Origin: Neopestalotiopsis rosae | Lineage: Eukaryota > Ascomycota > Sordariomycetes > Amphisphaeriales > Sporocadaceae | Length of the DNA stretch: 64,000 bases | NCBI GenBank assembly: GCA_023078685.1 | Contig: JALGAS010000003.1 | Coordinates: 5,146,001 to 5,210,000 of the forward strand | Direction: 5' to 3' | In this document: in pieces, positions 1 to 19,710 of the stretch | Layout: each line of letters opens with the position of its first letter | Position numbering within the stretch: the stretch's first letter is position 1 | Position numbers and translations under genes: made by a program | Notes under the pieces: model-generated | What the model saw: only the letters and a program-made list of their open reading frames with translations | Databases searched by the model: none | Told to the model about the DNA's origin: nothing

Positions 1-838
1 GGGGGACGTGGCGGGACCCATGTCGCCGAAGATGATACTGTGAACTATCGAAAAGGTGAGTCGATGTGGCGAAACCAACAAGGTGAGAGGTGAAAAACTT
101 ACTTTGCGCGTGGGGAAGACCCTCGAGCATGGAGGACATTTGGGCATAGTTGTCAAAGCCGTAGATGATGTTCATGGTCTTGGAGTTGTAGGCGCCAGCC
201 TGCATGTCGCCGATGATGGGGTCGCCATTCTCGTCATTGCCCAGGCCGCCGTTGAACTCGCGCGTGAAGCAGTGCAGGCGATTGCCGACCGTGTTCATAT
301 CCGGCCAGCCCATGGCGAGGGTCAGGTTGGTGTTGGCAAAAGGTCCGTCAACGACGCAGCGCTGGAAGCCGGGGACATCGCTGCCGGTCTTCTTGCCGTC
401 GCCGCCAAAGCCGGTGGCAGCGTCAAAGACGGGCGCGTTGATCGTGTTCAGGGCGTCGGCGTCAATGCTCCAGTCCCAGTAAGGCTGGACGCCAGTATAT
501 CCACACTCGTTGCGAAGCAAATCCTCGTGCAGCTGCACAAACCAGCGATGCCAGGGCAGGAAGTTGGCCACAAAGTGGATTTCGGTGTTTAGGCTGAAGT
601 GGGTGTAAACGAGATCGTCCATGCGGGTAGTGACGGCCTCAATTTCGGCGTATTTCTCCTTGGGAAGCTCGCGCAGACACACGGCGGCGCGAAGGTACTC
701 GGCCTTTTCGGCGCTGTCCAGATCACGCCATTCCTTGCGGACTGCCGGGTTCGTGCAAGTGGTGTCTGCACGGCGGATGGCACTCGCAGCAGAGGTGGCT
801 GCGAGAGCGAAAATGGTGAGAAGCGATTGAGGAAGCAT
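1..838 (-). CDS. secreted tyrosinase-like copper oxidase (5' part; runs off the window)
   Basis: Read on the minus strand from the ATG at 838. Exon 1 is 103-838, then a 58-nt intron (45-102, donor GTAAGT, acceptor ATAG), then exon 2 from 44 to the window edge. The product starts with a signal peptide (first ~20 residues, Ala-rich, ending SAASA). It then has a copper-A-type region with YTHF followed by FLPWHRWF, then QPYWDW, and the start of copper B with PHAQIH across the splice junction followed by FGDMGP. These are hallmarks of the tyrosinase central domain (PF00264), a secreted binuclear type-3 copper enzyme that oxidises phenols; its true substrate cannot be told. About 259 residues are visible; the rest of CuB is outside. 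It is not visible as one open frame because of the intron. Family confidence is high; boundaries are limited by the window edge. Confidence 0.88.
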   Translation of the reverse strand, partial: MLPQSLLTIFALAATSAASAIRRADTTCTNPAVRKEWRDLDSAEKAEYLRAAVCLRELPKEKYAEIEAVTTRMDDLVYTHFSLNTEIHFVANFLPWHRWFVQLHEDLLRNECGYTGVQPYWDWSIDADALNTINAPVFDAATGFGGDGKKTGSDVPGFQRCVVDGPFANTNLTLAMGWPDMNTVGNRLHCFTREFNGGLGNDENGDPIIGDMQAGAYNSKTMNIIYGFDNYAQMSSMLEGLPHAQSKFFTSHLVGFATSTHLFDSSQYHLRRHGSRHVP

Positions 839-2098
839 TTTTGTGAGTTATAAGTCTTAAACGAGTGACTGTGTTGTGATTATGTATAATAGTTTATAGC
901 GAGAGACGACTCAAGTCATGAGATGGGCCAAGACAAAAGAGCCATGAAGATTTCGACGATGCTCGACACTTTATAGCATTCAGCTCGTTCGTTCCACTTC
1001 ACGATGCCTCGGCCGAGTGGCATCGCTTAAGCATGTCAATAAGCATATAATTAAGGAACGTTACCAGCATTTGCTCTCTAGCATATTAGGTGGGCAATGC
1101 GACCAAGCCAGCACTGAGTTGCCAGTACGATGTCTATCTAAAAGCGGTATACGCAAAATGTCCGATTCGCTGGGCTTCAGAGCACTGCCTTCCCGTACGG
1201 GGTGTCCGGCCTCTGCCGGGGTGGGTAGCGCCCCTTAGGGTGCCGCTTCCACTACGACCATTGCCGGTCCCTTGCAATTTCATGCTTCTAGAAGACAAGC
1301 GCGGATCCATCCCCATTACTTAGCACCTTCGTATGCGAAACCGACAGGGATCATCCGAGTCTCTTGGCATGCTCGTATTCTTGACCCGTACGTTTCAAAA
1401 GCCTCTTAACTCCCCATTCCCAGAGTTGCCGTCCAAAACCAGCTCGTGTGTATGCTGGGTAAGCTGAGTCGTGGATGACAAAGGGCCAAGACGCCGTAGC
1501 GCGATGTATGGAAAGAGTTCGAAACAGCATGGATACAAAACGGAAATATAAGCGAAATATTGAGTATTTTCTATTACTTAATACACATGTGAGCACCTGA
1601 GCTGACTTTACATAATTGGAAATAGATGCGCGTTGAGTTATGAGGTTCTGCAAATCAGCGTGCTTTACTGAGATTTCATCATGAAGCGCAGGTGTTTTAT
1701 GCCGTACAATTGGCGGCGGACCAATTCTGCGCGCTACCTGGGGTGGTCAGCCGCCCATGGCAGCATTCGATTGCCGAGCTTGGCACAACTGCGGAATGAT
1801 GTACATAGTGAAGACCTTGCGCGACGCATGCGATGTCTACCGATGTATGAAGCGCACTTCCCACAGCCGTGTATCTATGTAGGTAGCCGTGGCCAAAAGA
1901 GACGCCGTAGACGTTCAGTCGCCGCGGCCCCAAGTAGGACTGGGCCACTGATCTCCCCACTTAGGACCTTTCTCAGGCTTTGACTGATGCGAAGGTCAGT
2001 GGCACGCACAACATTGCTTAAATAGCCTGATGAGCCAACGAATGAATGCGCATTAGTATCGAATCAAGTTGGCAGACATGAGCAGCAGAAGGCTTGTC
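839..2098. other. intergenic region, no convincing gene
   Basis: This 1.26-kb stretch holds only short overlapping open frames on both strands (for example 1681-1983 plus and 1697-1960 minus). None has a recognisable motif or clean splice partners. The part next to 838 should contain the tyrosinase promoter. Confidence 0.6.
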
Positions 2099-5000
2099 TC
2101 AGAACTCCTCAGTGACGTCGTAGAATACGTCTTCATCGCTGCTTGAGTCGCTACTGCTTGCACTCTCTACCATCCAAAGCAGTTCTCGGAACGCTTGGCC
2201 GATGGTAGGATCCTTAGATCCGTACAATCGATGGACTTCCAGAGCTGTTTGCCTCGATGAGTTGCACAAGGTCGTGTCCAGACCAGCCAAGCCGTGATCC
2301 TTCGACACCCTCAACGTTTCTGCATGCCCCATGCGTGCTAGATAGTGCAGGATTGTTTCTCCTTGATCGTCTACTTGAAGATAGTCGGCTTGGTGCGCGA
2401 GTAATAATCGCAAGCATTCGTGATTATTCTTTGCGATGGCCAGTTGAAGCGGGGTCTTGTGTATCATTGGGTCGGCCTCGTTAATATCAGCATTCTCCTC
2501 GATAAGGTATTCCAAGATCTCTGGCCGATTGTTGCGAGTAGCAATCGTCACCGGAATTGGACCACAGTGTCCCAGTTCGGGAGGCCCGAGTTTGCCGCCC
2601 GCCTCTCTTAATCTGCGAACGGTAGATAATTTAGCTGTCCAACACGCTGTTATAAATGGAGTCATTTTGAATTGGTCCACCATATTGACATCAGCTCCAG
2701 CACCAATGAACGTGTCAACCAACATTGTAATATCGGCTGGACTACGATGAATTGCCTGTGTCAGTGGTGTGTAGCTCCCCAAGGCTGCGCGTACATTCAC
2801 GTTCCCACCTGCTTCAATTAGAATGCGAGAAGCAGAGGCATCGTTTCGTGCTGCAGCCCAGTGAAGTGGTGCTCTTCCTGTTTCGTCCAAGCTGTCAAGC
2901 TGTGCAAGGATCAAAGGATCGCGGCTCTGAAGAATGGAATCGAGGCTGGCTGGACATATGCCTATGACTACTTTGGTAAGGAAGCTTAAATCCATGTCGT
3001 TGATGTAGGACGAGATTGGAAGCAATTCGGCAAGCCTGCGACAAATACTTGGAGGTAGCATCTCACGTAATATCATCTGTGTAGCTTTCGAGATTGCCGA
3101 GGGGGTTCCTGGACCTTCTGAGTATGGATCCGCGCCATATCTGAGACAAATCTCTACTCCTTTCATACAACTCACGTGGAGAGCACTGTGCAAAGGAGTA
3201 GCCCCGCTCGAACTCCAGGCATTCACGCATGCCGGGTCATCTCTCAGACATTGCTCCAGTACTTCTATTTTTCCCTGAAGTGCGTAAGCAAACGCGGGAA
3301 AATACTGCAATGGACGTATATCCCATATTTTCAGGCTAACAGTGATACTGCCACGCGACCAGCTGATGAGGATATGTAGAACATAACGCAGGAACCATCT
3401 TGGGAATAGATATGTCAGACGAATTCGCATATAGTCATGTCGAAGGCACTGGCTCTGGTCGCATCCTGATGATATAATAGGATCCCCTTTGTATCCTCCA
3501 AATAAGGTGCCACAGATATTTCTCAGTTGAGGTGGAAGTGAGAACCTCATTTCAAGTGGTTTGCGCCGGTGGCAAGAACACAAGCATTGATCATGACAGT
3601 TCGAGGGTTGACTGAAAACAGCGAAAGCATATGCGTGGGCAGAAATGTGATTTGTTGATTGATACAAAGCTTCCCAAACTTTTGTCTCAAGAGCCTCCAA
3701 ATCACTTGTACCGGATGAATCTGGAAGCTCATCGATGTGGCGGATGAGATTGGGCTGAAACTTGCTAGAACCAGAGGCTCCAAGTCTTTCCTTTCGAATG
3801 GACATAATATTTCTAGCTCCTGAGCCCGTTTTCTGTGTTTCAACATGCTCGACGTGTCTTCCTGTTCCTGGAGGGCGCTCTCCCAAGGATGATCGATTGA
3901 CTGGGCCTGGTTCTCCTTCGACATTCCCAGCTTCGTACATCGGAGCTAGTTCTCTCGTCACCGAAGACTCCTCGTGCAGATCGTGGAATTCTGCACCAAA
4001 CTGGCTGGAGGCAATATTGTGCTTGTAATTCAGCCCATCAAAAATGGACTCGATGGATCCCAATTCGACCTCTGTTTTGCTTGTCTTTGTGCTAGCGTAC
4101 ATGTGATTAGGGCCATTTGCACAACGTAGCGCGGGTTTATCGTTTCTTGGACTTACATGCTGTGAATAATGAGCATATTATTGATTTTGCGACGATTCTT
4201 CCTCAGAGCTTTCAGCAATCGATGAATGTCGTTATCACTCGACGGGAGCTTCAGTCCATCTCTGATGCCTCGTTGTTCTTGAATCTCGTCGAGTAGTTTC
4301 TTAAGTAGCTTCAAATGCACTGCCGTCGTCTCAAAATGCTGTTCTATAACTGGCAGGAGACCCTTGTTTAGGAGTCTTAGCTTAGCCTTTTGATCTTTGT
4401 GAGTAATGTCGAACTCGTGAAGTATAAGTCGCACTTCAGAAACCTCATTGTTCAGAGCCAGCAATGACGAGGGACAGTTCTTCAAGGTCTGGATAGTCTT
4501 GAGAAGGGCTGTGGATATCTTGCCAGCTTCATCCAGCAGCCTAGCCCCGCTCGTGAATGTTGTAAGTATCTGGGAGAAACCTGTATCCTCGTTGGAAGTC
4601 TCGTATCCAGTGTCTTTTGAGTAACACGAGAGAGAACGCAGATCCTCGAACTGGAGTTGCCACTCCTCGACACCATGTGTAAGCTTTGTCGCTTCAGTTA
4701 GGTCGAATAGGTTCTTTGCCTCGATATCATTTTCATGCTCTCTCTCCTTCATGTACTCTGCACCAATTCCAAATATCGCAGCTGCACCATGAAGCATGTC
4801 CATGACCATCTCATCTTTCCGAGACGTTGGTCCAAGGGCCTTTTTGTAGAACCAGTCATGTGCAATCCTGTTGTACATGAAGTCTGAGCAAGTCGTAACT
4901 TGAACCTCGAAAGTGATGACAGGGAGGTCAGATGTCGTTCCCAATGTTACGTGATGATTGTGAGATTCATAGCTTCCAAATTGTGAATCCCAAAGTTCGC

Positions 5001-5496
5001 CGGGCTGGCGCTCGCATGACCAATGGGTGGGGGTCTTGATCGCTCGAAAATTCTGAGAGATAAGGTCATTCACCGTTGCAACGTCTCTTGCGTATTGAAC
5101 GACAACAAGAGAGCCTGCAAGATCATGTATCGTACTGAATATGTCTTCGAGTCCGGAATATGACTTTCCGCGATGTTTCTCGCGACGATCAAGCGACTTC
5201 TGCACAGATTCGGCAGACTTCACTCTGCCCAGAACCAGACAGTCGAATTTCCTGTTTCCAAGCTCCGCACGGAAGTAGCGCACGATCTCATTTACCAGCC
5301 TCTCATAACCTGCATGCAGGCTGGGCCATGTTTCTGAGCAAAAGGCTATCTTGAGCGCCGAGCCGTCTCTGGTTCGAGAAGAGGTTGCTGCAGAGATGAC
5401 AGCCTGCACTTGGCCCTGCACAGCCTCGTAAGTGGACAGTAAGGCTGTGTCATCCACTGCCAGCCGAACCTCTTCCTGTGATGATTGTGATTCCAT
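2099..5496 (-). CDS. RelA/SpoT-like nucleotidyltransferase - helical domain - ankyrin repeat protein
   Basis: Two exons, 4157-5496 and 2099-4091, joined by a 65-nt intron (donor GTAAGT, branch CTAATC, acceptor CTAG). The phases match (2+1), giving about 1110 residues. Residues ~60-220 resemble the RelA/SpoT synthetase fold: RVKSAESVQKSL, then IHDLAG (Asp125) and, after a long insert, FEVQVTT (Glu197) followed by AHDWFYK. Both acidic positions expected for (p)ppGpp-type synthetases remain, but the usual Arg after DLAG is replaced by Ser-Leu. Residues ~310-446 form a helical segment like fungal NLR/HeLo-type N-terminal domains. The second exon starts with a CSCH..GTLFGGYKG Cys/His-containing region, followed by several ankyrin repeats (motifs TPLHSALH, APLHWAA, TPLTQAI, TPLQLAI) and an acidic tail. 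Pairing of an NTase with ANK repeats suggests sensing or regulation; the product nucleotide, if any, is unknown. Fungal alarmone function is not shown. Confidence 0.82.
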
Positions 5497-6181
5497 ACCT
5501 TCTAGGTACGTATGGTGTTGGTTGAGTGAAGTAAGTTAAGTGCATTTATGAATTGCCTCAAGAGCCTAGTTGGAAACGAAATGCTGGGCATGGAAGGCGA
5601 CGGGTGGGTCGTTCGCATGAAGACCTCCATCAAAAGGCTCTGACGCCTTATAAGGCATATTCGACAGAAGCTCGGCGTTTGATGAAGTCTGATCAAAGCA
5701 TATATGCAGACCGAAGTTTTGCATGGATCCAGCCACCCCCAATGCTACCCCTCGCTTAGTGCCCCAATCAATGCTGGAAACAAATTCAGTAATGATACTT
5801 ATGCTTGCTTACTTCTAACCGACTGACCGCCAAGTTGGTGCAATGATTAGGCGGAAGTCCTTCTTCGCCCAGCTACTTGTAGGTGGACCCATTCAGGATG
5901 AACAGGTACGCCCTACGGTATGCGCTGGTCATTATGTCCTTCTTTTCTCTTGCAGACCCCATGTAGACTTGATTCACACGCTCTTATTGGTTACCAGCCA
6001 GGAGTTGCAGGCCCGACTTGGGAGGAAGCCGAATGTCAGACTCGGCTCGATTTTGCCAAGTGAGTGAGTCGGGGCGTCAGATTTGACTTCACATGGTTTA
6101 TTCCCGGTACTGGTCGCGATACGTTCTTGAGAACTATCCACATTGCTTGTCTCTCATTTCTGCTCAAATTAGGGACTCAAT
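5497..6181. promoter_or_regulatory. shared upstream region of a divergent gene pair
   Basis: The 685 bp between the ATG of the RelA-like/ankyrin gene (minus, 5496) and that of the CorA-like gene (plus, 6182) must hold both promoters. No gene is visible. No defined operator could be recognised. Confidence 0.5.
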
Positions 6182-7701
6182 ATGAATCCGTCTTATCGCG
6201 AGTTTGTGGAAGCACAGGTCCATCGAAATCCATGTTTCAGTGAACTTGCTACTTTTCTGTCTCGCCCTTATAAGTCGTTTGATAGTAAGCTTGTTCACTG
6301 TCTTGACTTTCCGCCCCACCTCGACAGAAAAGCAGTACAGAGCACGATGACGCTAGATGCATGTCTCTCAGAGGTATCCTTTGTCGCCAAAGATCCATCG
6401 AGAAAGTGCATCAGACGAGTGATTTGCATAGAAGACATCAGTTCTCAATCAATCGAGCAGCTAGGAGCGGTGATGGACATTAGCCCATTGTTCTTTGCCT
6501 CGTATTTGAGTACTTCATTCAAGGGCATCGATCAGGCACCGTCACCTCCATCAGTTGCACTATTCCCCTCCCAGGTCACTACAAATAACTCGCTACATTT
6601 GCACTACCAACGAGCTATCAAATTTCCTTGTTCATTGGCCTCGAATAGTCCATATGAGTTCAAAAGTTCGGGTAATATACCACGCTCAATTAGGCGCCTG
6701 GCGCCGCTCTCTGGTTTGAAGCCGGGTCTAATTCGGAGTTGCTGTTCTATTCTACTGAAGATTCTTGATGACCAATCTTGGATATGTATGTCCTACACAC
6801 GCCCCAATAATTGTGGTGACAATTGTTAATACTTTGACGGATAGGCATAGTCCTTGTTGATCGTACAGATGCAGATCTGATCATACCTGGCCCCTCTGGG
6901 TCGGATCCAGAACAGTACCCCCAACGGACCCCACAGGTACCTCTACAAGGCGCATTTGAAGACTTTTCAGAATTCCAGAAGTATTCGAAGTTCTGCTCAG
7001 CTACGGACGGCGAAAGTTGCAAAAAAAGAACTTCAACTCTGGAAAGCATCTTACACTACTACCAAACATCACCTCCAAATTTCGATCCAACAAACCCAAC
7101 GGTACTAGCAATTGGCTACTACCTTCTAAGAATAGTCGCAGCTGAATGGATGCTCTACACTCAGCTTATGAGTTGCTATGCCAAGTACTACGAGTATTCC
7201 TTCCGAATCCGCGAGCCCCGCTCCATGGAAAACGATATCATCGATCTACAGCGATGGCGGCGTCGCAGCAGACAGAGTCTTCATAAACTTCAGTTGGTGG
7301 AGCTGTTCCTAGCTAATCACCTCGACCATATGACAGGTCTTGGAAATATCTCTGCATATACAACACTACGAGAGGATTTCGGTTTTCTATCAACGCGAAT
7401 CGAACGTCATGGTCGCTCATTCGAGTCGATACTTCCAGTCGCAGCCACGATCGCACAGCTTACTGACACCCGAATTTCGATCGATGAGGCTGTGAACGTG
7501 CGGTATCTAACCTATGTTGGCCTGGTATTTCTACCACTCACATTCGCTTCAGGCATATTTAGTATGCAGGACCGCTTTTTACCTGGGCAAAGAAGCTTCG
7601 CAATCTATATTTCTGTGGCGGTACCCTTGGTTACGATAGTGCTGATCGTCTCTGTAGTGACCTCCGCCAATTGCAAAGGATGGAGGCAAAAGCTAAATTA
7701 A
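6182..7701 (+). CDS. fungal CorA-like transmembrane protein
   Basis: Exons 6182-6785 and 6845-7701 are separated by a 59-nt intron (GTATGT...GATAG) and encode about 486 residues; the phases agree. The N-terminal half has the fungal CorA-like signature (IEDIS...MDISPLFFASYLS, roughly residues 82-109). The C-terminus has two predicted membrane helices (about 422-442 and 453-473). The loop after helix 1 reads GIFSM, in the place of the GMN motif of true CorA Mg2+ channels. Without GMN, magnesium transport is doubtful; such proteins are abundant in filamentous fungi and mostly uncharacterised. It is transcribed divergently from the RelA-like/ankyrin gene and ends close to the flavin monooxygenase gene, which converges on it. 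Family assignment is solid; substrate and role are unknown. Confidence 0.82.
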
Positions 7702-7964
7702 CATGACGATGATACAGGAACATAAAATGATGATATGGCAATATTTGCCGTTGCCCCGATCCCATTCACTCTCATAGCAACTTTTGTCTACCAGATATTC
7801 AGCTAGGTTATTCCCGTGGATCATTTTTCGTCTTTACATAGAATTCATTTTCTTAATATTGTGTCTGTGCAACGACATGCATTGTGAGAAACTCCGTGAT
7901 CTCACGGCGTCCATCCCGAGGACAATCATACCTCTAAGGTTCTAATACGAAGTACACTTGAATT

Positions 7965-9422
7965 CTATGCTTTATCGAATAGCTCATGCAAAACCTTGTC
8001 TGCGTGCCGCTCTGCATCATGCTGAAGGATCCAATCCTCACGTGGTAGCTTGATGCTGTCTGGATCTTGTTTGGCCTTCTTCCAATCTGCCTTGTGCCAT
8101 CGCTCTCTCGTGGATTCGCCAGTCTTCTGCACGGCGCAAACTCTCTCGTATCTAAATATCATGGAGGGTCAGAAACAATCGGGCACTACGCATGTATGAT
8201 ACTTACCTAATATCTTGAAAGGCCTGAAGCGCTTGAGGGATCCGACCTTTGCCAGCCTTTTGTACACATGCTGCAATAGTCACACCATCTTCCATGGCCT
8301 GCGACGCGCCTTGAACACTGGTAGGGAGGAACGGGTGCGCGGCGTCTCCGATCAAGGCAATCCTTCCGGCGCTGCTTACCCAGTGCGGCAGCGGCTCGCG
8401 GTATACGAGCTTCCAGTCCACGACGGATGGAGTCTTCTCGACAATGGCGCTGCACATGGGATCCCAATCGGCCAGCATCTCGAGGACGTCCTCAATCTTA
8501 CCGGGAAAGGACCACGACTCTTCAATATCATAGGTGTCTTTGTGCGTCAAGACCCATGAGCAGCACTTGCCGCCTTTGAGCGTGGAAAATAGAAAATGCG
8601 CATCGGGTCCAATCCAACCATTGAAGGTATCTCCGTTGATGCAAAACTCGGCGGTCCGAGGATCCTCGGCCAGCTTTTCGCTAGGAAACCTGGCAAAATT
8701 ATTAGCGGACCTCGTCGACGATGTCTCTGCACCAATATGTGTCTACATACCATGCTCTCCAGATAGCATAACCGCTGCTTTTCGGCTTGTCCTCGTAACC
8801 CAAGACCAACTCGCGGGCCTTGGACCGGACGCCGTCGGCACCAATTACACAGTCGCCATGAACCTGCCAAAATCAATTAGTGGCGACCCCCGACAAAAGT
8901 GCTCCCATTTCTTACCTTTTCTCCATTCTCCAATATGATACCAGCGCCGTCGTCTGTTTCAAAGTACTCGGCGGCCCTCTGGCCGAGATGAATAGGAACT
9001 CCAAGTTGGTCCTTGACATAGTTGAAGACAATCTCGTGCAACTCTCCCCGATGTCCATTGAGCGTAGGCGCATCCTTGCTGGGCACCGAAGCCGGCTGTT
9101 GCGCCACCACCTCGCCGGTATCGTACTTGTGGATGCGGAACCCGTAAGTACTCAAGTCGATGCACTCGCGCTTGAGCTTGATGGCGATGCTCTCGTCGCT
9201 GTCCGTCTGTTGCCAGCGGGCAAAAATACGACCGGCATTGGGGCCAAACGAGATTATGTCGCCCAGCACTTTGAGTTCGGGAAAGGCTTCGTAAATTTCC
9301 ACGCGGAGGCCGCGGCGGTGGCATTCGACGGCTGCTGTGAGACCGCCGAAACCCGCGCCTACGATGATGACTTTGGTTTTGTCTCTCGGGACGCTATTTC
9401 CATCACCGGCGGGAACTGTCAT
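7965..9422 (-). CDS. FAD-dependent aromatic-ring monooxygenase (salicylate hydroxylase-like)
   Basis: Four exons: 8916-9422, 8751-8863, 8207-8689 and 7965-8151. The introns are 52, 61 and 55 nt, all GT-AG and phase-consistent, for about 429 residues. The three class A flavoprotein monooxygenase motifs are present: the Rossmann dinucleotide motif VGAGFGG near residue 22, the DG motif GDCVIGADGVRS, and the FAD-ribityl GD motif GDAAHPFLP. This family uses NAD(P)H and O2 to hydroxylate aromatic or polyketide substrates. The protein is probably soluble. It lies 468 bp from the end of a P450 gene on the same strand, so the two may act in one pathway, possibly detoxification or secondary metabolism. 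The substrate cannot be predicted from sequence. There is no sign of damage. Confidence 0.9.
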
Positions 9423-9890
9423 GGTGGGCCAGAGAAAAGTGGAAATACTTCGATCCTAGAACCTATAATCGAATATAAACCGTCACGCAAACTAAAGTAT
9501 CTAAACAGTCTTTGTATATCAATTGAAATAGTTCACCAGTCTGCTGGATTGCTCACTTGATGTATGAAGCCTAAACCCTGCAGCAAGTAGTGCGTGATAC
9601 CCCAGACTGTTTACCCCGCTGATGACCCCATGCTCTCGCGGAGGCCGTTTACCATGGTACTAAACCTCTCTTTCGGTAAATATGCAACTGCCGATATGCG
9701 GGGTGAGTAATCATCGTGGCACTATTGAACGGCTGCTCGAAGTTGTAGCCGAGTAGCGCTGGGCAGGTAGTTGAGGTCAGCCACGATGATTCAAACCGAG
9801 TGCATCCTATGGCCACTCATGTGAATCATCATCTGTGTATATATTGTAGATGCTACGGCTAGGATTGTAAGGTAAACAAGGCATATTTGC
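9423..9890. promoter_or_regulatory. intergenic region upstream of the flavin monooxygenase
   Basis: The 468 bp between the P450 stop and the monooxygenase ATG must hold the monooxygenase promoter and the P450 3' end. No gene or defined motif is seen. Confidence 0.4.
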
Positions 9891-11501
9891 TCATTCAAAT
9901 GGTGAAAAGCTGTCGAGAAAGCGCTCTGCATCTTGCGTCTCCTTCTCTATAATACGTGATCGCTGTTCGTCTCTGACCTCAATCTTGCATTGAAAACTCT
10001 TCGGTCTGATGTTGAAGCCTTCAGTGTAGTCAAATATGTCATATCGTACCCCAGGAATCGCAGAAATGTTAAAAGTCCAGAGCAGTTTAGCCAAAGCAAT
10101 AAAGAGTGAGTTATACGCCAGGTCGGCACCTGGACAGATGCGGCGGCCCCAACCAAATGACGAATGACCCGACTTCGAAGGGTGTGATGCTTGACCTTGG
10201 AACTCCGCCGCCTTCTTCTCACCCCTCTCGAGGAAGCGCTCGGGCTCAAAGACATGCGGGCGGGGATAGTAATCAGGATTCATGTTGATGGCCCACGAGT
10301 TGCCCAGCACGGTAGTTCCTTTCGGAATGAAGAAACCATTGTAGTGGTCGTCCATAGTACTCGCGTGAGGTGTACCGCCAAGGACTGCGACTGGCCTCCA
10401 GCGCAAGACTTCCTTGACCAGAGCCGCTAGATACGGGAGTCTAGGCGCATCGACAAAAGTCGGGCTTCTTTCGGATCCAACCACTGCGTCCAATTCCTCT
10501 TGGGCGCGGCGAGCAGCATCGTGGTGCGTCACAAACGCAAGAATGGCGCTGCACATGGTCGATGCGGTCGTGTCTGATCCGGCGCCAAAGAGAGATGCGG
10601 GTATGAAGGAAAAGTCGCGATCCGACAGTGGGATATTGCCAGCTTCTTGCTCTCGAACTTCGAGCAGCATGCGACACAATGATTTCGGTAGTGAAGCCAA
10701 GTCGCCACTTCTTTTCGCTTTGTCAATATCAGATCGGACGACATTGACAAGTGCCATGTTTGCATCCTCTTCCTTCTTCCCGTGTCTTTCGATATCCGCT
10801 TTCCAAGGAGCCAGAAAGTTGGGCACGTGCTTGAGGGCCGGTATCGATTCAACCATGTATTTCCCTGGGACGTTGAGGCTTGCTGAATACTGCATGAACT
10901 CGAAGCGCTGCTTGATGACGCTTGATCCCATGGAATCAATCCGGTGCCCATATGCAATAGCGAAAACAACACTGCTAGTGAAGCGTTCAAAGAGCGGCTC
11001 CCATTTTTCCGGCTTCTCAAACAGCTGAGAACAGAGGCGAGTCGCTTCGGCTTCCTGGATCGGCAGATATTCTTGTAGCGCCCTAGGCATCAGGGCCTGG
11101 TGAAGCAATTTTCTTCGAATACTCCATTCTTTGCCATACGGCTGAACCAAGATACTCCCGCCTTTCCACAAGAGTTCGCCCATGGCAATCATTCGCGGAC
11201 GCGACGAGTACTTGGCACTCCTCTTCTCCATCAAATCCTGCGCAATGACAGGATCCGATAGCACAATCGTTGGCCGCCTGCCTATCCAGATGGTGAAAAT
11301 TGGTCCAAATGTTCGCGACCACTCCTCAAATTGAACCCAGGGTTTCGTTTTGGGTAATTGATGCTGGTTACCAATGAACGGTAGGGGGCGCGGACCCGGT
11401 GGCATACGCTGCCATAACCGATAATCATTAATCAGGACAGCCACCACCATAGCCGCGATCCCAAATAGCGGATAGATCAAGACATATTCAATGGGCGCCA
11501 T
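9891..11501 (-). CDS. cytochrome P450 monooxygenase
   Basis: A single intronless frame of 536 residues starting at the ATG at 11501. It has an N-terminal membrane anchor (about residues 5-25), a proline-rich hinge PPGPRPLPFIGN, the I-helix oxygen-binding motif FGAGSDTTAS, the ExxR motif in KEVLRWRP, a PERFLER segment and the heme-cysteine motif FGWGRRICPG. All core P450 elements are intact, and the length is normal for a microsomal fungal P450. It should sit in the endoplasmic reticulum and need a P450 reductase. It resembles the broad group often annotated as O-methylsterigmatocystin oxidoreductase, but no specific substrate is implied. It is in tandem with the FAD monooxygenase. The absence of introns contrasts with its neighbours. 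Confidence 0.95.
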   Translation of the reverse strand: MAPIEYVLIYPLFGIAAMVVAVLINDYRLWQRMPPGPRPLPFIGNQHQLPKTKPWVQFEEWSRTFGPIFTIWIGRRPTIVLSDPVIAQDLMEKRSAKYSSRPRMIAMGELLWKGGSILVQPYGKEWSIRRKLLHQALMPRALQEYLPIQEAEATRLCSQLFEKPEKWEPLFERFTSSVVFAIAYGHRIDSMGSSVIKQRFEFMQYSASLNVPGKYMVESIPALKHVPNFLAPWKADIERHGKKEEDANMALVNVVRSDIDKAKRSGDLASLPKSLCRMLLEVREQEAGNIPLSDRDFSFIPASLFGAGSDTTASTMCSAILAFVTHHDAARRAQEELDAVVGSERSPTFVDAPRLPYLAALVKEVLRWRPVAVLGGTPHASTMDDHYNGFFIPKGTTVLGNSWAINMNPDYYPRPHVFEPERFLERGEKKAAEFQGQASHPSKSGHSSFGWGRRICPGADLAYNSLFIALAKLLWTFNISAIPGVRYDIFDYTEGFNIRPKSFQCKIEVRDEQRSRIIEKETQDAERFLDSFSPFE

Positions 11502-12553
11502 GATGACTCTGCTGGCAAGAGTTGAGGCGCAATCGCGGAATGCAGATTTCGATCAACGTAATCAAGGATATTTTATTGACGAGTATGAAAAAAGTCGTGC
11601 TCGGAGATGGTGTTTGACTATCTGCCATGAGACCCCAACATATTGCCGAGGATTTGTTTAGGCGAGGGCTCCAATCCATGGCTATCAGCTGAGCCATGGC
11701 GGGGTAGTACGCTGGCTGCTAGGCGGTCGCAGTGGAGTTTGGATGCTATTATACCTAGCTCCACCATATCGGCAGATGCGAAGCACTCGAGTTTTATTTT
11801 TGCATGATGCATTATCCGTTCAAATATTGTATCGAAATACAAAGACAGATCATCACATACGACCATAGCTCTTAGAGAACTCGGCATCCCGTCCGCTCTG
11901 CCCTAGATAAACTGAGAAGTTTTACGTCCAGGGCATTGTTTATCAGCTATTCTTTTGCGCGTTCGAATTGGTAGTCGTGGCATATGACAGAAGTATAAAA
12001 ACGAACTTGATTGTAGTGGGGGTGGGATGTAGTGGGTGTTGCCGGGTCTAGCGCTTTGAGCCACAGATCTGGCTATCTGGTATGCGAGTTGCGCTTGCTT
12101 TAAGACGCAGCACGGCCGTTACCACTAACGTATCCTGGCCGTTTGGAAGTGGGGATAGGAATGCTGTCCGCTGGCTGCTCTCGCTAGCGATTGAATTCCA
12201 GTTCGTGTAGACCGGCGTAATATGATCGCTGTACGTCCTAAAGCATCCTCTTAGCAATATGGAATACTTATATTTGCGCGACGGGGTGTGTCCACTAGAA
12301 CCTTTTCAGCGTCTACCGTTGCATTGAGTGGGATAAAGATTGTTGCGTATTTTGGCAGGGGACTGAGATATATAGGCCGCACTTGATATCGCTTCTTTTG
12401 CTATAAATAAAATAAAATCCACGTGCCGAACCAGGAAAAAAAAACACGAATAATTATAGAAGCCGATCAGAAGGTAAGACCGAGCTATTCAGAGAGTCCA
12501 CGAGTATCTTAGACACTTCGTGGGTCGTTGAGTTAGAGTGAACTGAGTACGTC
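11502..12553. other. intergenic region, no gene seen
   Basis: The 1.05 kb upstream of the P450 holds the P450 promoter and short spurious frames only. AT content rises toward 12.4 kb. Confidence 0.5.
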
Positions 12554-13070
12554 CTATCGTGAATATCGAGCAAGACAGCTAGCTATTCTAGAGAAGGAAC
12601 TAATAAGTAATCGACCGACGGAAGAAGGGCGAGCATATCCACAATTTTGTGAGAGGAACGATATAGCCCTACGGCTGTGAGTGCACCAAGATCGCACATG
12701 TCCTCTCCGTAACTCGAATTGCGCGAGGAGTAAGACAGTAGCGAGCCACGATATGGCTCCATGCTGCATATTTCGATCATAGCTTGATGTCTGTGATGGG
12801 GTGACAATGATATGATCTCCGCTTTCGGTATTCCTACCAACGGCCTCAAATACTGTGACGAGATGCTCTAGGGCATGTAATGATGATCGATTGCCGATAG
12901 GCTCGGTGCTGCGAGAGAACGAGACATCAAGGGCCGATAATGCTAGAGCAGCGTGGAAAAATGTACAGTCTAGATACTCAGCTTCTAAAACTCCATCGGG
13001 CCCAAGAATTGACAGCAGACCTACGGGCTGCACATCTTGTAGATAGTGGTAATAGATCAAGTCCTGTGGA
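12554..13070 (-). pseudogene. relic of a fungal transcription-factor middle domain
   Basis: An open stretch of about 168 residues without an ATG start (it opens after an acceptor-like CCACAG) resembles the regulatory domain of Zn2Cys6 factors. The features are HAALALSALDVSF, then a predicted helical stretch, then WLATVLLLAQFELRRG followed by a Ser/His/Arg-rich helix. It stops early. The DNA upstream (13.1-13.45 kb) shows only fragments broken by stops in all frames, with no intact Cys6 cluster. It could be the 3' end of a broken regulator, perhaps once linked to the nearby P450/monooxygenase. Assignment rests on pattern similarity only. Confidence 0.4.
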
Positions 13071-13948
13071 ATTATCGCGCACTCTTATAACGCTGCCGGC
13101 GCAACGTGGTCTGGGAGACCCGGACGTGCTAAACATACGTAACTAATAGGATAAGTAGGATGGGCCTGGCCTCCAGAAGCTGACAAAGCCTGTGCGATCG
13201 CATCTGCATTATCTTCCGATTCCTGGCTGGCGAACGGCAGTGGCTCTAAACTTGTACTTATTCAGCTCCGGGCGGTCCTGGTTAAGGAAATCTCGGCTGC
13301 CTGAAGTTAATTGTACCGACGAGTTAATATCGTGCCGCGGGGTCAGGTCCGAGACCGCCTCCAGCAGCGTTCCGTTATCAGGATGGGCTTGGTCCCCGTC
13401 GACGAGCAAGATGCACACCTAGTGGTGGAGTCAGGGCCTCTGCACCAATTAGATCAGCAGACGTACCCAAAGATTCTGAAGCACTAGCGGCTAGCTAACC
13501 ACGGGACTTTCGACAGATTTACGAGTCTGCCTTTTTGACGGTTGCACTGTCTTATGATGTTGATGTCTTTTTTGAAAGATGCAGTCTAATCTTTGAAGAT
13601 AACCTGTCGCAAATAACCACTATATCAAAGACTGAGTCGAGTACACTGTGAGCAGGTGTAAGTGAACCAACCCTACTGCAGCGAGAAAGTCCGTCCGAGG
13701 ATCACTTACGTTTGTAGCACGCTGGCTCCCCCTCGTCGCATTTGAGCTATCGCGCAAGACAGGTTTTGCAGCCTGTACGGTCTCTCGAGATGACGTTACG
13801 CCGGCGTGGTGTATGAGGCATGGACCTGAGCTAGGAGTCATATCCTTCTTTAATATTTCTGTAATAGCGGCCTGCTTGTCTTGGCTAGATGGGCATTTCC
13901 CTAGGAATAAGACAGTACCTAGGTAAACATAAGGTAGGGAAAACGAGA
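13071..13948. other. decayed intergenic DNA beside the MITE
   Basis: Frames are broken in all six readings. Some pieces may belong to the transcription-factor relic. No intact gene is supported. Confidence 0.4.
13940..13948 (+). repeat. left target-site duplication of the MITE (9 bp)
   Basis: The sequence AAAACGAGA here is repeated exactly at 14650-14658 on the other side of the element, as expected for transposon insertion. Confidence 0.85.
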
Positions 13949-17974: not shown

Positions 17975-18910
17975 TCACACAACTCCATACGCCTCCTCAA
18001 TCCACTTCGCATGACCTGCCCAATTGCGCTCCTCCACCCACGTCCGAATCGCTTGCGTATCGCGACACTGGTGCCCCGGGTTCTTGGCGAAATGCAGGAA
18101 ATCATTCGTGCCTTGAAGTGTAGTGTCGGCATGGCATAAAACCTGCTGTCGAAGAAAGTCGATACAGTGCAAGCTGTGCACGTCATCGCGGGGCCACGCT
18201 TCCAGGGGAAGTTTGGATATGAGTCGATTACGGATATGATGCTATAAGTTCGGTTATCAAACCATGCTCTGGGGATAAGGTTCTTCCAATGGGGCCCCAA
18301 AGCTTCTTACCAGGCAGTGCAGAGTGGTACATGTCTAGTTGGTAAATGCTATGGCCCGGAGTCTCTGGTGATTCTCTGCTAGGTGAGAACCCAAGCCCAA
18401 GAGCCCATTCCGTGGGCAATGATATTATGCCGCTAGCTGAGAATCCGAATGAGCAAATCGGGCTCAATGTGTTCGTGCGCGATACTCACTGGCCTGCAAA
18501 TCACTCCAGAACTTGCTCGACTCGGGGGATTTCCTCATGAGATCGACATTCTCTGTGAAGTGCACAGTTTGGTTATAATCTTGAAGCCGAAAATCTGATT
18601 TTTCAGTCAATAATTCATTGCATGCGGTACCTCTGTTCGTCCAGCTTTTTGGTGTTTTTGGTTCCTCACATCTCTCAGTAAAGTCAGGGCTCCTTCTTCG
18701 TACTGCTCGACCCCGATCATAGATGAAGAATACGGTGATGAGGATCATTGCTTCGATGACCAAATATATCGCAGTGCGTATGCATTGGGTTCGCGGGGTT
18801 ATGCGCGCCTGTTTCCCGAAGCCAGAACCGTCGCTGGTAACCGCATCCTCTTGAGCGAGGACTTGATACTTCTTTTCGACCCTCGCGAATGGCATCATTC
18901 TGTCGAGCAT
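17975..18910 (-). pseudogene. UstYa-like (DUF3328) oxidase, frameshifted in its first HxxHC motif
   Basis: Three exons: 18490-18910, 18311-18436 and 17975-18241, with introns of 53 and 69 nt (GTGAGT...CTCAG; GTAAGA...TATAG). The N-terminus is cytosolic, followed by a membrane helix (IYLVIEAMILITVFFIYD), the usual topology of the family. Exon 3 carries HHIRNRL, then the second motif VHSLHCIDFLRQ, then CHADTTLQG and HQCRDTQAIRTW, all diagnostic of UstYa proteins. These catalyse oxidative cyclisation of dikaritin RiPPs or related oxidations. At the first motif the exon-2 frame reaches MYH and the remaining LHCL codons (CTGCACTGCCTG) are two bases out of frame. The exon-3 phase also requires two more bases, so a 2-nt loss in exon 2 is indicated (or a sequencing error). 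Without it the protein would be about 270 residues. Confidence 0.8.
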
Positions 18911-19404
18911 TTGATATTTCCACTCTGGTCAACAGAGTGCTGGTGTCAAAAGCGGTCTGAGCGTGGAAATCTCGGGGTTGATTTGAACTCACATTACTTC
19001 GTATAATCATTCCACCCTACGTGCGTGGCAAGATTGAATGTGTTCAAAAGCATATGAACGATTCAAGAGGCGCAGTCCTTGACGTGCATGAAGGATCATG
19101 ATGCCTGTCCCCGTAAGCAGAGCTGAATAGCTGTACAAGTCCTCGTCAAATAAGATCGATGCCTATCCTTCTTCGTGTTGCATTAGTGCGCGCCAACGAA
19201 GCGACTGAGGTCGATATATGCAACATGCTGACACACCCCGTGATGTCAGGGTCCTGTTCTGCACCGTTGACTTGATCATATAGGATGACGGAATGTCCTA
19301 TACAATATCAGTGAGGGGTTGCGACTTGTCACGACACCGTAAAACACCGTTCGACCGATATCGATATAATACATTGATTTATTTGGCAGAAGGCCGCCAA
19401 AAAA
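18911..19404. promoter_or_regulatory. divergent promoter region of UstYa-like gene and repeat precursor
   Basis: 494 bp separate the UstYa ATG (minus, 18910) from the precursor ATG (plus, 19405). An AT-rich TATA-like stretch lies at about 19359-19376, some 30-45 bp before the precursor ATG. No other signal is clear. Confidence 0.4.
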
Positions 19405-19710
19405 ATGCGATCGTCAACCCTTCATATTGTATTTGCATCTTTCCTGTTGAATGGAGCAATATCTGCACCACTGTAGACGGAGGCGACTCGAGAGCTCGAC
19501 GGACTGTACATGATGCGACACGCCGCGGATGATGAGCCAAGCATCGAGCAACGGGAGTCTGACGATGTCAAACTTGACGGACTCTACATGATGGGTTTTC
19601 TCGTCGAGGATGAGGAACCTGTGGATGTGGTCAAGAGAAACGCTGTGGATAAAGACGGACTATACATGATGTGGATACTTGAGGAGGACGAAGAGCCAGC
19701 GGATGAGTAG
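19405..19710 (+). pseudogene. putative dikaritin/KEP-type RiPP precursor with three 26-residue repeats, premature TAG after the signal peptide
   Basis: From ATG 19405 the frame encodes a classic signal peptide (MRSSTLHIV, hydrophobic core, ending AISA-P). It hits TAG at 19474-19476, and continues open in the same frame to the stop at 19708. The downstream part has three repeats starting DGLYMM at 19498, 19576 and 19654, spaced exactly 78 nt (26 residues). Each is followed by an acidic tract ending DEP/EEP and then a basic linker (EQRES, VVKRN); KR is a Kex2 site. Secreted, tandem-repeat, Kex2-cleaved precursors with Tyr-containing cores are the hallmark of UstA-like dikaritin precursors, and a UstYa homologue lies divergently next to it. 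The TAG is one C-to-T step from CAG. A 48-nt intron ending at that TAG is possible but would remove the signal peptide. The product is unknown. Confidence 0.65.
19498..19707 (+). repeat. tandem 78-nt coding repeats (DGLYMM units)
   Basis: Three units with GAC-GGA-CTN-TAC-ATG-ATG starting at 19498, 19576 and 19654. The first two units are full length (26 codons each) and the third ends after 18 codons at a TAG. Beyond that stop the frame still reads KVTRRN, resembling the KRN linker of unit 2, so the last unit may itself be cut short. Confidence 0.85.

What the first reader, a model, noticed from the sequence alone, without database searches (positions are those of the whole stretch)
17975..19710. 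Candidate undescribed dikaritin-type RiPP locus: UstYa-like oxidase gene divergent from a repeat precursor
Seen: a signal-peptide frame with three exactly 78-nt repeats (DGLYMM, acidic tract, basic linker with KR), and 494 bp away on the other strand a UstYa/DUF3328 gene. Known: UstA-like precursors are secreted, tandem-repeated, Kex2-cleaved and cyclised by UstYa homologues on an aromatic core residue. Inference: the core would lie around G-L-Y-M-M, a motif I do not recall from ustiloxin (YAIG), phomopsin or asperipin. The UstYa is broken by a frameshift and the precursor by a stop, so this may be a fossil locus whose intact form exists in relatives.
Basis: partly seen in the sequence, partly recalled or inferred. 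Interest (0 to 1): 0.88.

Follow-up and report, generated by a model that had tools for sequence, protein, structure and literature searches.

The report
Broken fungal cyclic-peptide gene pair
A fungus carries a damaged two-gene unit, a repeat-bearing peptide precursor and the oxidase that would close its peptides into rings, of a kind that is common in fungi and that has an intact-looking cousin in the same genome.

Summary
On the + strand, 19405-19710 is a secreted-looking frame with three 26-residue repeats (DGLYMM, acidic tract, basic linker), interrupted by a TAG at 19474. On the other strand, 509 bp away start to start, lies a four-exon UstYa (PF11807) gene, 18895-17975, whose frame breaks in its first HxxHC motif. 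An intact ortholog of the oxidase is annotated in Neopestalotiopsis clavispora (P0001), so the window is probably a pestalotioid fungus. The closest UstYa in the same genome (50% identical over the last exon) also stands head to head with a precursor: a secreted-looking frame with 12 EDLKGM[FL] repeats. Seven of 8 completely fetched UstYa loci hold a Kex2-type repeat frame, and all 8 such frames have a UstYa match diverging from them within 2.8 kb. The locus is best read as a recently inactivated ustiloxin/dikaritin-like pair. The arrangement is a known kind (1758 of 7878 surveyed Kex2 repeat proteins have a DUF3328 neighbour). The core motif is unmatched in what I searched, but unique cores are usual. 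Only one linker is dibasic, so a published KEP definition is not met. No annotated relative of the precursor was found, and splicing around the stop is not excluded.

The parts
17975..18241 (-). UstYa-like gene, exon 4; carries the second HxxHC motif (HSLHC, at 18178) and ends in its natural stop
   Evidence: PF11807 E=1.6e-12; 2 of 87 residues differ from P0001
18242..18310 (-). intron 3, inferred (GTAAGA...TAG, 69 nt)
   Evidence: sequence read by eye against intact P0001
18311..18436 (-). UstYa-like gene, exon 3; frame breaks between 18321 and 18311, inside the first HxxHC motif
   Evidence: 1 of 38 residues differs from P0001 up to 18321, then the frame is lost; intact motif at this place in P0001 and in the C3 paralog
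18437..18489 (-). intron 2, inferred (GTGAGT...CAG, 53 nt)
   Evidence: by eye
18490..18594 (-). UstYa-like gene, exon 2
   Evidence: 1 of 34 residues differs from P0001
18595..18669 (-). intron 1, inferred (75 nt, happens to stay open)
   Evidence: absent from P0001
18670..18895 (-). UstYa-like gene, exon 1: N-terminal tail and one hydrophobic stretch
   Evidence: 12 of 75 residues differ from P0001; 89% identical over 80 residues to P0002; no other copy in the genome at E<=0.1
18896..19404 (.). 509-bp region between the two divergent start codons, candidate shared promoter
   Evidence: sequence; inference
19405..19473 (+). signal-peptide-like start of the precursor frame
   Evidence: 19 of 2301 ATGs in the window pass the same crude rule
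19474..19476 (+). in-frame TAG between the signal-peptide frame and the repeats
19477..19710 (+). repeat frame with three DGLYMM units (copies at 19498-19515, 19576-19593, 19654-19671) and its stop

Best explanation
A recently inactivated, two-gene ustiloxin/dikaritin-like locus. As it would have worked before the breaks: the precursor enters the ER by its signal peptide and is cut after arginine residues in the linkers (one KR, otherwise single R). A membrane-anchored UstYa-type oxidase, transcribed from the same intergenic region in the other direction, then cross-links a side chain of the released DGLYMM-containing peptide, most plausibly at the tyrosine. Shown: the repeat, the UstYa homology, the divergent layout, an intact oxidase in a relative, an intact-looking paralogous pair, and the two interruptions in this assembly. 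Inferred: secretion, cleavage, cyclisation, co-regulation, and that the interruptions are real mutations. The confidence below is for the kind of locus; the first rival concerns only whether it is really broken and shares the same kind.
For: Repeats far above chance. In the six core codons the only differences among the three copies are synonymous (CTG/CTC/CTA); between copies 2 and 3, 6 of 11 differing codons are synonymous and 9 of 14 base changes are at third positions. UstYa PF11807 match. Intact ortholog P0001 in N. clavispora with both HxxHC motifs, PF11807 E=1.3e-23. Luminal part nearly unchanged (4 of 159 residues differ) against 12 of 75 in the N-terminal part, Fisher p=3e-4, which suggests that selection acted for most of the divergence and that the break is recent. 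Closest UstYa in the genome, C3:124788-125033, 50% identical over 82 residues, stands divergent from a 12-repeat frame, C3:122396-123298, that passes the signal-peptide rule in frame and whose linkers are also mostly single-Arg (9 of 11). Eight repeat frames in 7 of 8 completely fetched UstYa loci, each with a divergent UstYa match within 2.8 kb; 7 of these 8 frames have a signal-peptide-like ATG in frame or within 400 nt upstream. Literature: UstYa-type genes peak next to Kex2 repeat genes (PMC7329392, section 7).
Against: Both genes are interrupted in this assembly, so no product can be claimed here. The repeat frame has one dibasic site, whereas the eight other repeat frames have 2 to 16. 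Copies 1 and 2 differ in 19 codons of which only 2 are silent, copies 1 and 3 in 13 of which 3 are silent, so outside the core there is no sign of constraint for copy 1. No relative of the repeat frame at E<=10 in the protein collection nor elsewhere in the genome; the C3 precursor found none either. No transcription data. Nearest neighbours are a frame with a weak F-box match (below cut-off) and an AA12-like dehydrogenase, not RiPP accessory genes. The 8 loci were taken from the top of the UstYa ranking plus C3, not at random. For one frame, C3:135615, the nearest UstYa is convergent and the divergent one is second. The frame at C12:5117506 has no signal-peptide-like ATG by my rule.
Confidence: 0.8

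Rival explanations
1. The locus is of the same kind but intact in the living fungus; the frame break and the stop are assembly or base-calling errors.
For: One lesion per gene; the luminal part of the oxidase differs from the intact ortholog at 4 of 159 residues. The assembly has 17 contigs, so long reads are likely, and small indels are their usual error (recalled).
Against: Several other long frames of the window are open (a P450 frame of 553 aa matching the whole profile, a 793-aa HET frame and a 714-aa frame). Two errors within 1.2 kb, one in each gene of a functional pair, would be a coincidence.
Confidence: 0.25
2. The repeat frame makes a linear secreted peptide (pheromone-like or other signal) and only happens to lie beside a UstYa gene.
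For: Most Kex2 repeat proteins (6120 of 7878) have no DUF3328 neighbour (PMC7329392); spacer letters vary more than the core.
Against: A divergent UstYa and repeat frame recur at the paralogous C3 pair and in 7 of 8 fetched loci. The core carries a tyrosine in all three copies, the residue enriched in repeats with a DUF3328 neighbour (65.6% against 38.2%).
Confidence: 0.1
3. Splicing rescues one or both genes: the precursor's stop lies in an intron, or the oxidase is made in altered form.
For: In five other precursors of this genome the signal-peptide-like ATG lies outside the open repeat frame, with a donor-like site soon after the signal peptide. In the window a GT at 19473 overlaps the stop at about the same place.
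Against: That GT is in no donor-like consensus, and the only [CT]AG in 19405-19584 is the one at 19474, so removing the stop with a usual acceptor would also remove the first core and cut into the second. The closest paralog, C3:122396, runs open from its signal peptide into the repeats. No HxxHC is readable at the motif-1 position of the oxidase in any of the three frames, so any product would lack that motif.
Confidence: 0.12

Closest known systems
Ustiloxin / phomopsin / asperipin-2a type RiPPs (dikaritins) with UstYa-family (DUF3328, PF11807) oxidases
   Same: UstYa-family gene next to a tandem-repeat precursor with a signal-peptide-like start; a tyrosine in each repeat; basic residues in the linkers
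   Different: Core DGLYMM instead of YAIG (ustiloxin) or FYYTGY (asperipin) (PMC6514808 passages); only one dibasic linker; only two genes recognised in the immediate locus; both interrupted here
Kex2-processed repeat proteins (KEPs) with a DUF3328 neighbour (Umemura 2020, PMC7329392): 1758 of 7878
   Same: Signal-peptide-like start, three repeats of at least 8 aa, DUF3328 gene next door
   Different: That survey required at least three repeats between KR, KK, RK or RR sites; here one linker has KR and the frame has a stop
Victorin (RiPP host-selective toxin of Cochliobolus victoriae), as described in PMC9233826 passages
   Same: Multi-core precursor; the C3 paralog's core ends in Phe, and victorin is described as closed between a C-terminal Phe and an internal Leu
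   Different: No sequence comparison was made; the resemblance is loose and does not extend to DGLYMM, whose aromatic residue is internal

Membership tests
UstYa family (PF11807) | profile match over the curated cut-off | tested here: met
   48.2 bits against a cut-off of 25 on exon 4; the other window pieces do not match on their own; intact ortholog 84.5 bits
UstYa family (PF11807) | two HxxHC motifs (that two define the family is partly recalled; the PMC12048977 abstract names an HXXHC motif) | tested here: not met
   Second motif present at 18178, first lost to the frame break; both present in P0001 and in the C3 paralog. The window copy is a broken member.
Dikaritin-type RiPP locus | UstYa-family gene beside the precursor gene | tested here: met
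   509 bp between starts, divergent
Dikaritin-type RiPP locus | precursor with ER signal peptide | tested here: inconclusive
   Crude rule passed, background 19 of 2301 ATGs; no SignalP available; a stop separates it from the repeats
Dikaritin-type RiPP locus | three or more tandem repeats containing a conserved core | tested here: met
   Three copies, 78-nt spacing, 0 of 5000 shuffles
Kex2-processed repeat protein (Umemura rule) | repeats bounded by KR, KK, RK or RR | tested here: not met
   One KR in the frame; rule read
Dikaritin-type RiPP locus | translatable precursor | tested here: not met
   TAG at 19474-19476 in the unspliced frame; a rescue by splicing is unlikely but not excluded
Dikaritin-type RiPP locus | accessory genes (S41 peptidase, tyrosinase, MFS transporter, methyltransferase) | tested here: inconclusive
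   A tyrosinase lies at the window's left edge (2-847), about 17 kb away. No S41 peptidase, MFS or methyltransferase match among the 30 frames scanned, 5 of which belong to the pair itself; the window's other frames were not scanned.
Dikaritin-type RiPP | cyclic cross-linked peptide product | not testable with these tools
   needs mass spectrometry

The most novel reading that the evidence does not exclude
The DGLYMM locus and its intact-looking C3 paralog (EDLKGMF) define an undescribed subfamily of UstYa-RiPPs in pestalotioid fungi. It would have Asp-x-x-x-Met cores, mostly single-Arg processing sites, one dedicated UstYa and a divergent promoter as the minimal unit, with a cross-link whose chemistry (for instance Tyr or Phe with a methionine-flanked partner) has not been reported. 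This window would then show one member of that subfamily being switched off.
Probability: 0.15. Interest if true: 0.6.

Novelty: new member of a known kind. Interest (0 to 1): 0.36.

Why it matters
Precursors of this kind are short and repetitive, and neither precursor tested here had a relative in a very large protein collection, so such peptides are easily missed. One study of Pestalotiopsis genomes reports 1-2 RiPP genes per genome (PMC13237565, passage), whereas this genome has 78 UstYa matches and Kex2-type repeat frames in 7 of 8 fetched UstYa loci. The recurring head-to-head layout gives a simple rule for finding more. The locus also shows turnover of such pairs: oxidase and precursor both interrupted while the oxidase's luminal part is still almost unchanged.

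Tried and rejected
Rejected: the extra perfect match of the core pattern at C11:73030 is a single copy and is taken as chance (with up to one mismatch the pattern has 15 matches in the genome, and read backwards 12). Rejected: the DUF7485 and DUF4306 hits (E 0.16 and 0.058, below their cut-offs). Rejected as evidence: the P450, FAD/NAD-binding, tyrosinase and weak transcription-factor frames at 2-13 kb; they recall ustiloxin accessories, but the genome has 63 tyrosinase matches and no link was shown. An apparent stop in the first exon of the C3 UstYa was not counted as a lesion, because P0001 indicates an intron at that place (by eye). Led nowhere: the protein search with the C3 precursor (7996 candidates scored, none at E<=1); the genome search with the oxidase's first piece (only itself); the paper search for DGLYMM (0 papers); the paper search for six core strings (79 papers hold at least one; the 20 listed hold only 'glymm'); paper searches gave listings, from which I opened PMC7329392 (abstract, sections 7 and 13, passages), PMC12048977 (abstract and outline only), and passages of PMC9233826, PMC13237565 and PMC6514808. 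Not done: structure prediction, fold search, and a search of random UstYa-free regions of the genome as a control for repeat frames; the only such control is the rest of the window, where I saw, by eye, no other Kex2-type frame among the ten best-scoring frames.

Full report
What is there. The window is C11:5146001-5210000 of an unnamed 53.8-Mb, 17-contig fungal genome. On the + strand the frame 19477-19707 holds three copies of DGLYMM, each followed by an acidic tract, spaced exactly 78 nt. Its internal similarity (score 112 at a lag of 26 residues) is reached by 0 of 5000 shuffles of the frame; of 15400 shuffled frames of the window none up to 150 aa reaches it (longer ones not counted). Tandem Repeats Finder does not list it. 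In the six core codons the only differences among the three copies are synonymous leucine codons. Between copies 2 and 3, 6 of 11 differing codons are silent; between copies 1 and 2 only 2 of 19, and between 1 and 3 only 3 of 13, so the spacer varies freely and the case for constraint rests on the core and on copies 2 and 3. In the same frame an ATG at 19405 opens a 23-residue signal-peptide-like stretch; my crude rule passes 19 of 2301 ATGs of the window. A TAG at 19474-19476 separates it from the repeats.

The oxidase. On the other strand the piece 17975-18238 matches PF11807 (UstYa) at E=1.6e-12; the other pieces do not match on their own. A protein search with the first open piece found an annotated full-length relative in Neopestalotiopsis clavispora (P0001, 241 aa, E=5.7e-47) and an unnamed 96-aa partial relative (P0002). 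Read against P0001, the window gene has four exons (18895-18670, 18594-18490, 18436-18311, 18241-17975; junctions by eye), with one frame break between 18321 and 18311, inside the first HxxHC motif. The second motif, at 18178, is intact. Piece by piece, 12 of 75 residues differ in the N-terminal part but only 4 of 159 in the luminal part (Fisher p=3e-4). This suggests that the gene was under selection for most of its history and that the break is recent, or is an assembly error.

The same pair elsewhere in the genome. The closest UstYa of the genome is at C3:124788-125033 (50% identical over 82 residues of the last exon; the next best is 44% over 56 residues). About 0.9 kb before its start, on the opposite strand, begins a frame that passes the signal-peptide rule and holds 12 cores EDLKGM[FL]; 9 of its 11 linkers end in a single Arg and 2 in KR. 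Both HxxHC motifs are readable in this UstYa. The C3 region also holds three more UstYa genes, a second repeat frame, two MFS frames and an arginase-family frame. So the precursor-oxidase pair of the window has a paralogous pair in the same head-to-head layout.

Is that layout general? PF11807 has 78 matches in the genome. Seven of the eight loci hold a Kex2-type repeat frame, eight frames in all; the C16:1681361 locus holds none. All eight frames have a UstYa match diverging from them within 2.8 kb; in seven it is also the nearest, while for C3:135615 the nearest is convergent. Seven of the eight have a signal-peptide-like ATG in frame (2) or within 400 nt upstream (5); C12:5117506 has none. 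The eight frames have 2 to 16 dibasic sites, the window frame has one. The choice of loci was not random.

The stop. In the five precursors whose signal peptide lies outside the open frame, a donor-like site follows it closely, so an intron at that place is usual here. The window has no consensus donor between 19405 and 19584, but a GT at 19473 overlaps the stop, and the only [CT]AG in that stretch is the one at 19474. Skipping the stop with a usual acceptor would therefore remove the first core and cut into the second. I keep nonsense mutation (or sequence error) as more likely and give splicing 0.12, raised from 0.07 on these two calls (56, 57).

What it most likely is. A ustiloxin/dikaritin-like two-gene unit: secreted repeat precursor, cleavage after Arg, side-chain cross-linking by a UstYa-type oxidase, now interrupted in both genes. 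The kind is known: 1758 of 7878 surveyed Kex2 repeat proteins have a DUF3328 neighbour, most types are found in one genus, and 2560 have no homolog (PMC7329392; abstract, sections 7 and 13 and passages seen). A single UstYa-type gene suffices in asperipin-2a. Tyr is the cross-linked residue in ustiloxins, phomopsins and asperipin, and each DGLYMM has one; that it is used here is inference. The KEP rule of that survey (repeats bounded by dibasic sites) is not met.

Limits. No relative of the repeat frame turned up among 5.8 billion proteins at E<=10 (which considers only proteins of 0.55 to 1.75 times the query's length), nor a second copy in the genome, so intactness of the precursor in relatives is untested. 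The DNA of N. clavispora was not available. The taxon is inferred from P0001 alone. No expression or chemistry data exist here. That the core is unreported rests on one paper search with 0 hits for DGLYMM and on 20 of 79 listed papers of a second, in a library that lacks most subscription journals and with no access to supplementary tables.

Verdict. The finding is real and its reading as a fossil dikaritin-type pair is mostly right, but its novelty is modest: a broken new member of a common kind. The wider picture, a genome rich in divergent UstYa/repeat pairs while one Pestalotiopsis study lists 1-2 RiPP genes per genome (PMC13237565, passage), is the more useful result.

Noticed in passing
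C3:122396-141954 of the same genome (L029-L031): A region with two repeat frames (EDLKGMF x12; EEAVDGTQIAEGWKR x3), four UstYa genes, two MFS frames, an arginase-family frame and a P450-like frame (the last recognised by eye): a candidate large RiPP cluster.
   Followed up: partly
C14:3878766, C13:1360245, C10:5906269, C13:1110872, C12:2466879, C12:5117506: Six further Kex2-type repeat frames beside UstYa genes, with cores around DAIQEY, VWSNSAIT, WAWTKWED, PLYW, LRSYWP and EPHHKGKGKK; several seem to have an intron between signal peptide and repeats.
   Followed up: partly
window 2-13084: Tyrosinase (2-847), FAD/NAD-binding pieces (8206-9455), P450 (9894-11552) and a weak, below-cut-off transcription-factor piece (12557-13084) within about 17 kb of the pair; gene types that I recall from ustiloxin clusters, but no link shown.
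   Followed up: partly
window 4156-5535: Frame with a RelA/SpoT-like domain (PF04607, E=4e-8), unexpected to me in a fungal genome; next to an ankyrin-repeat frame 2102-4177.
   Followed up: no
C16:1681361-1681909: A strong UstYa match (E=3e-40) with no repeat frame found in the 20 kb fetched around it.
   Followed up: no
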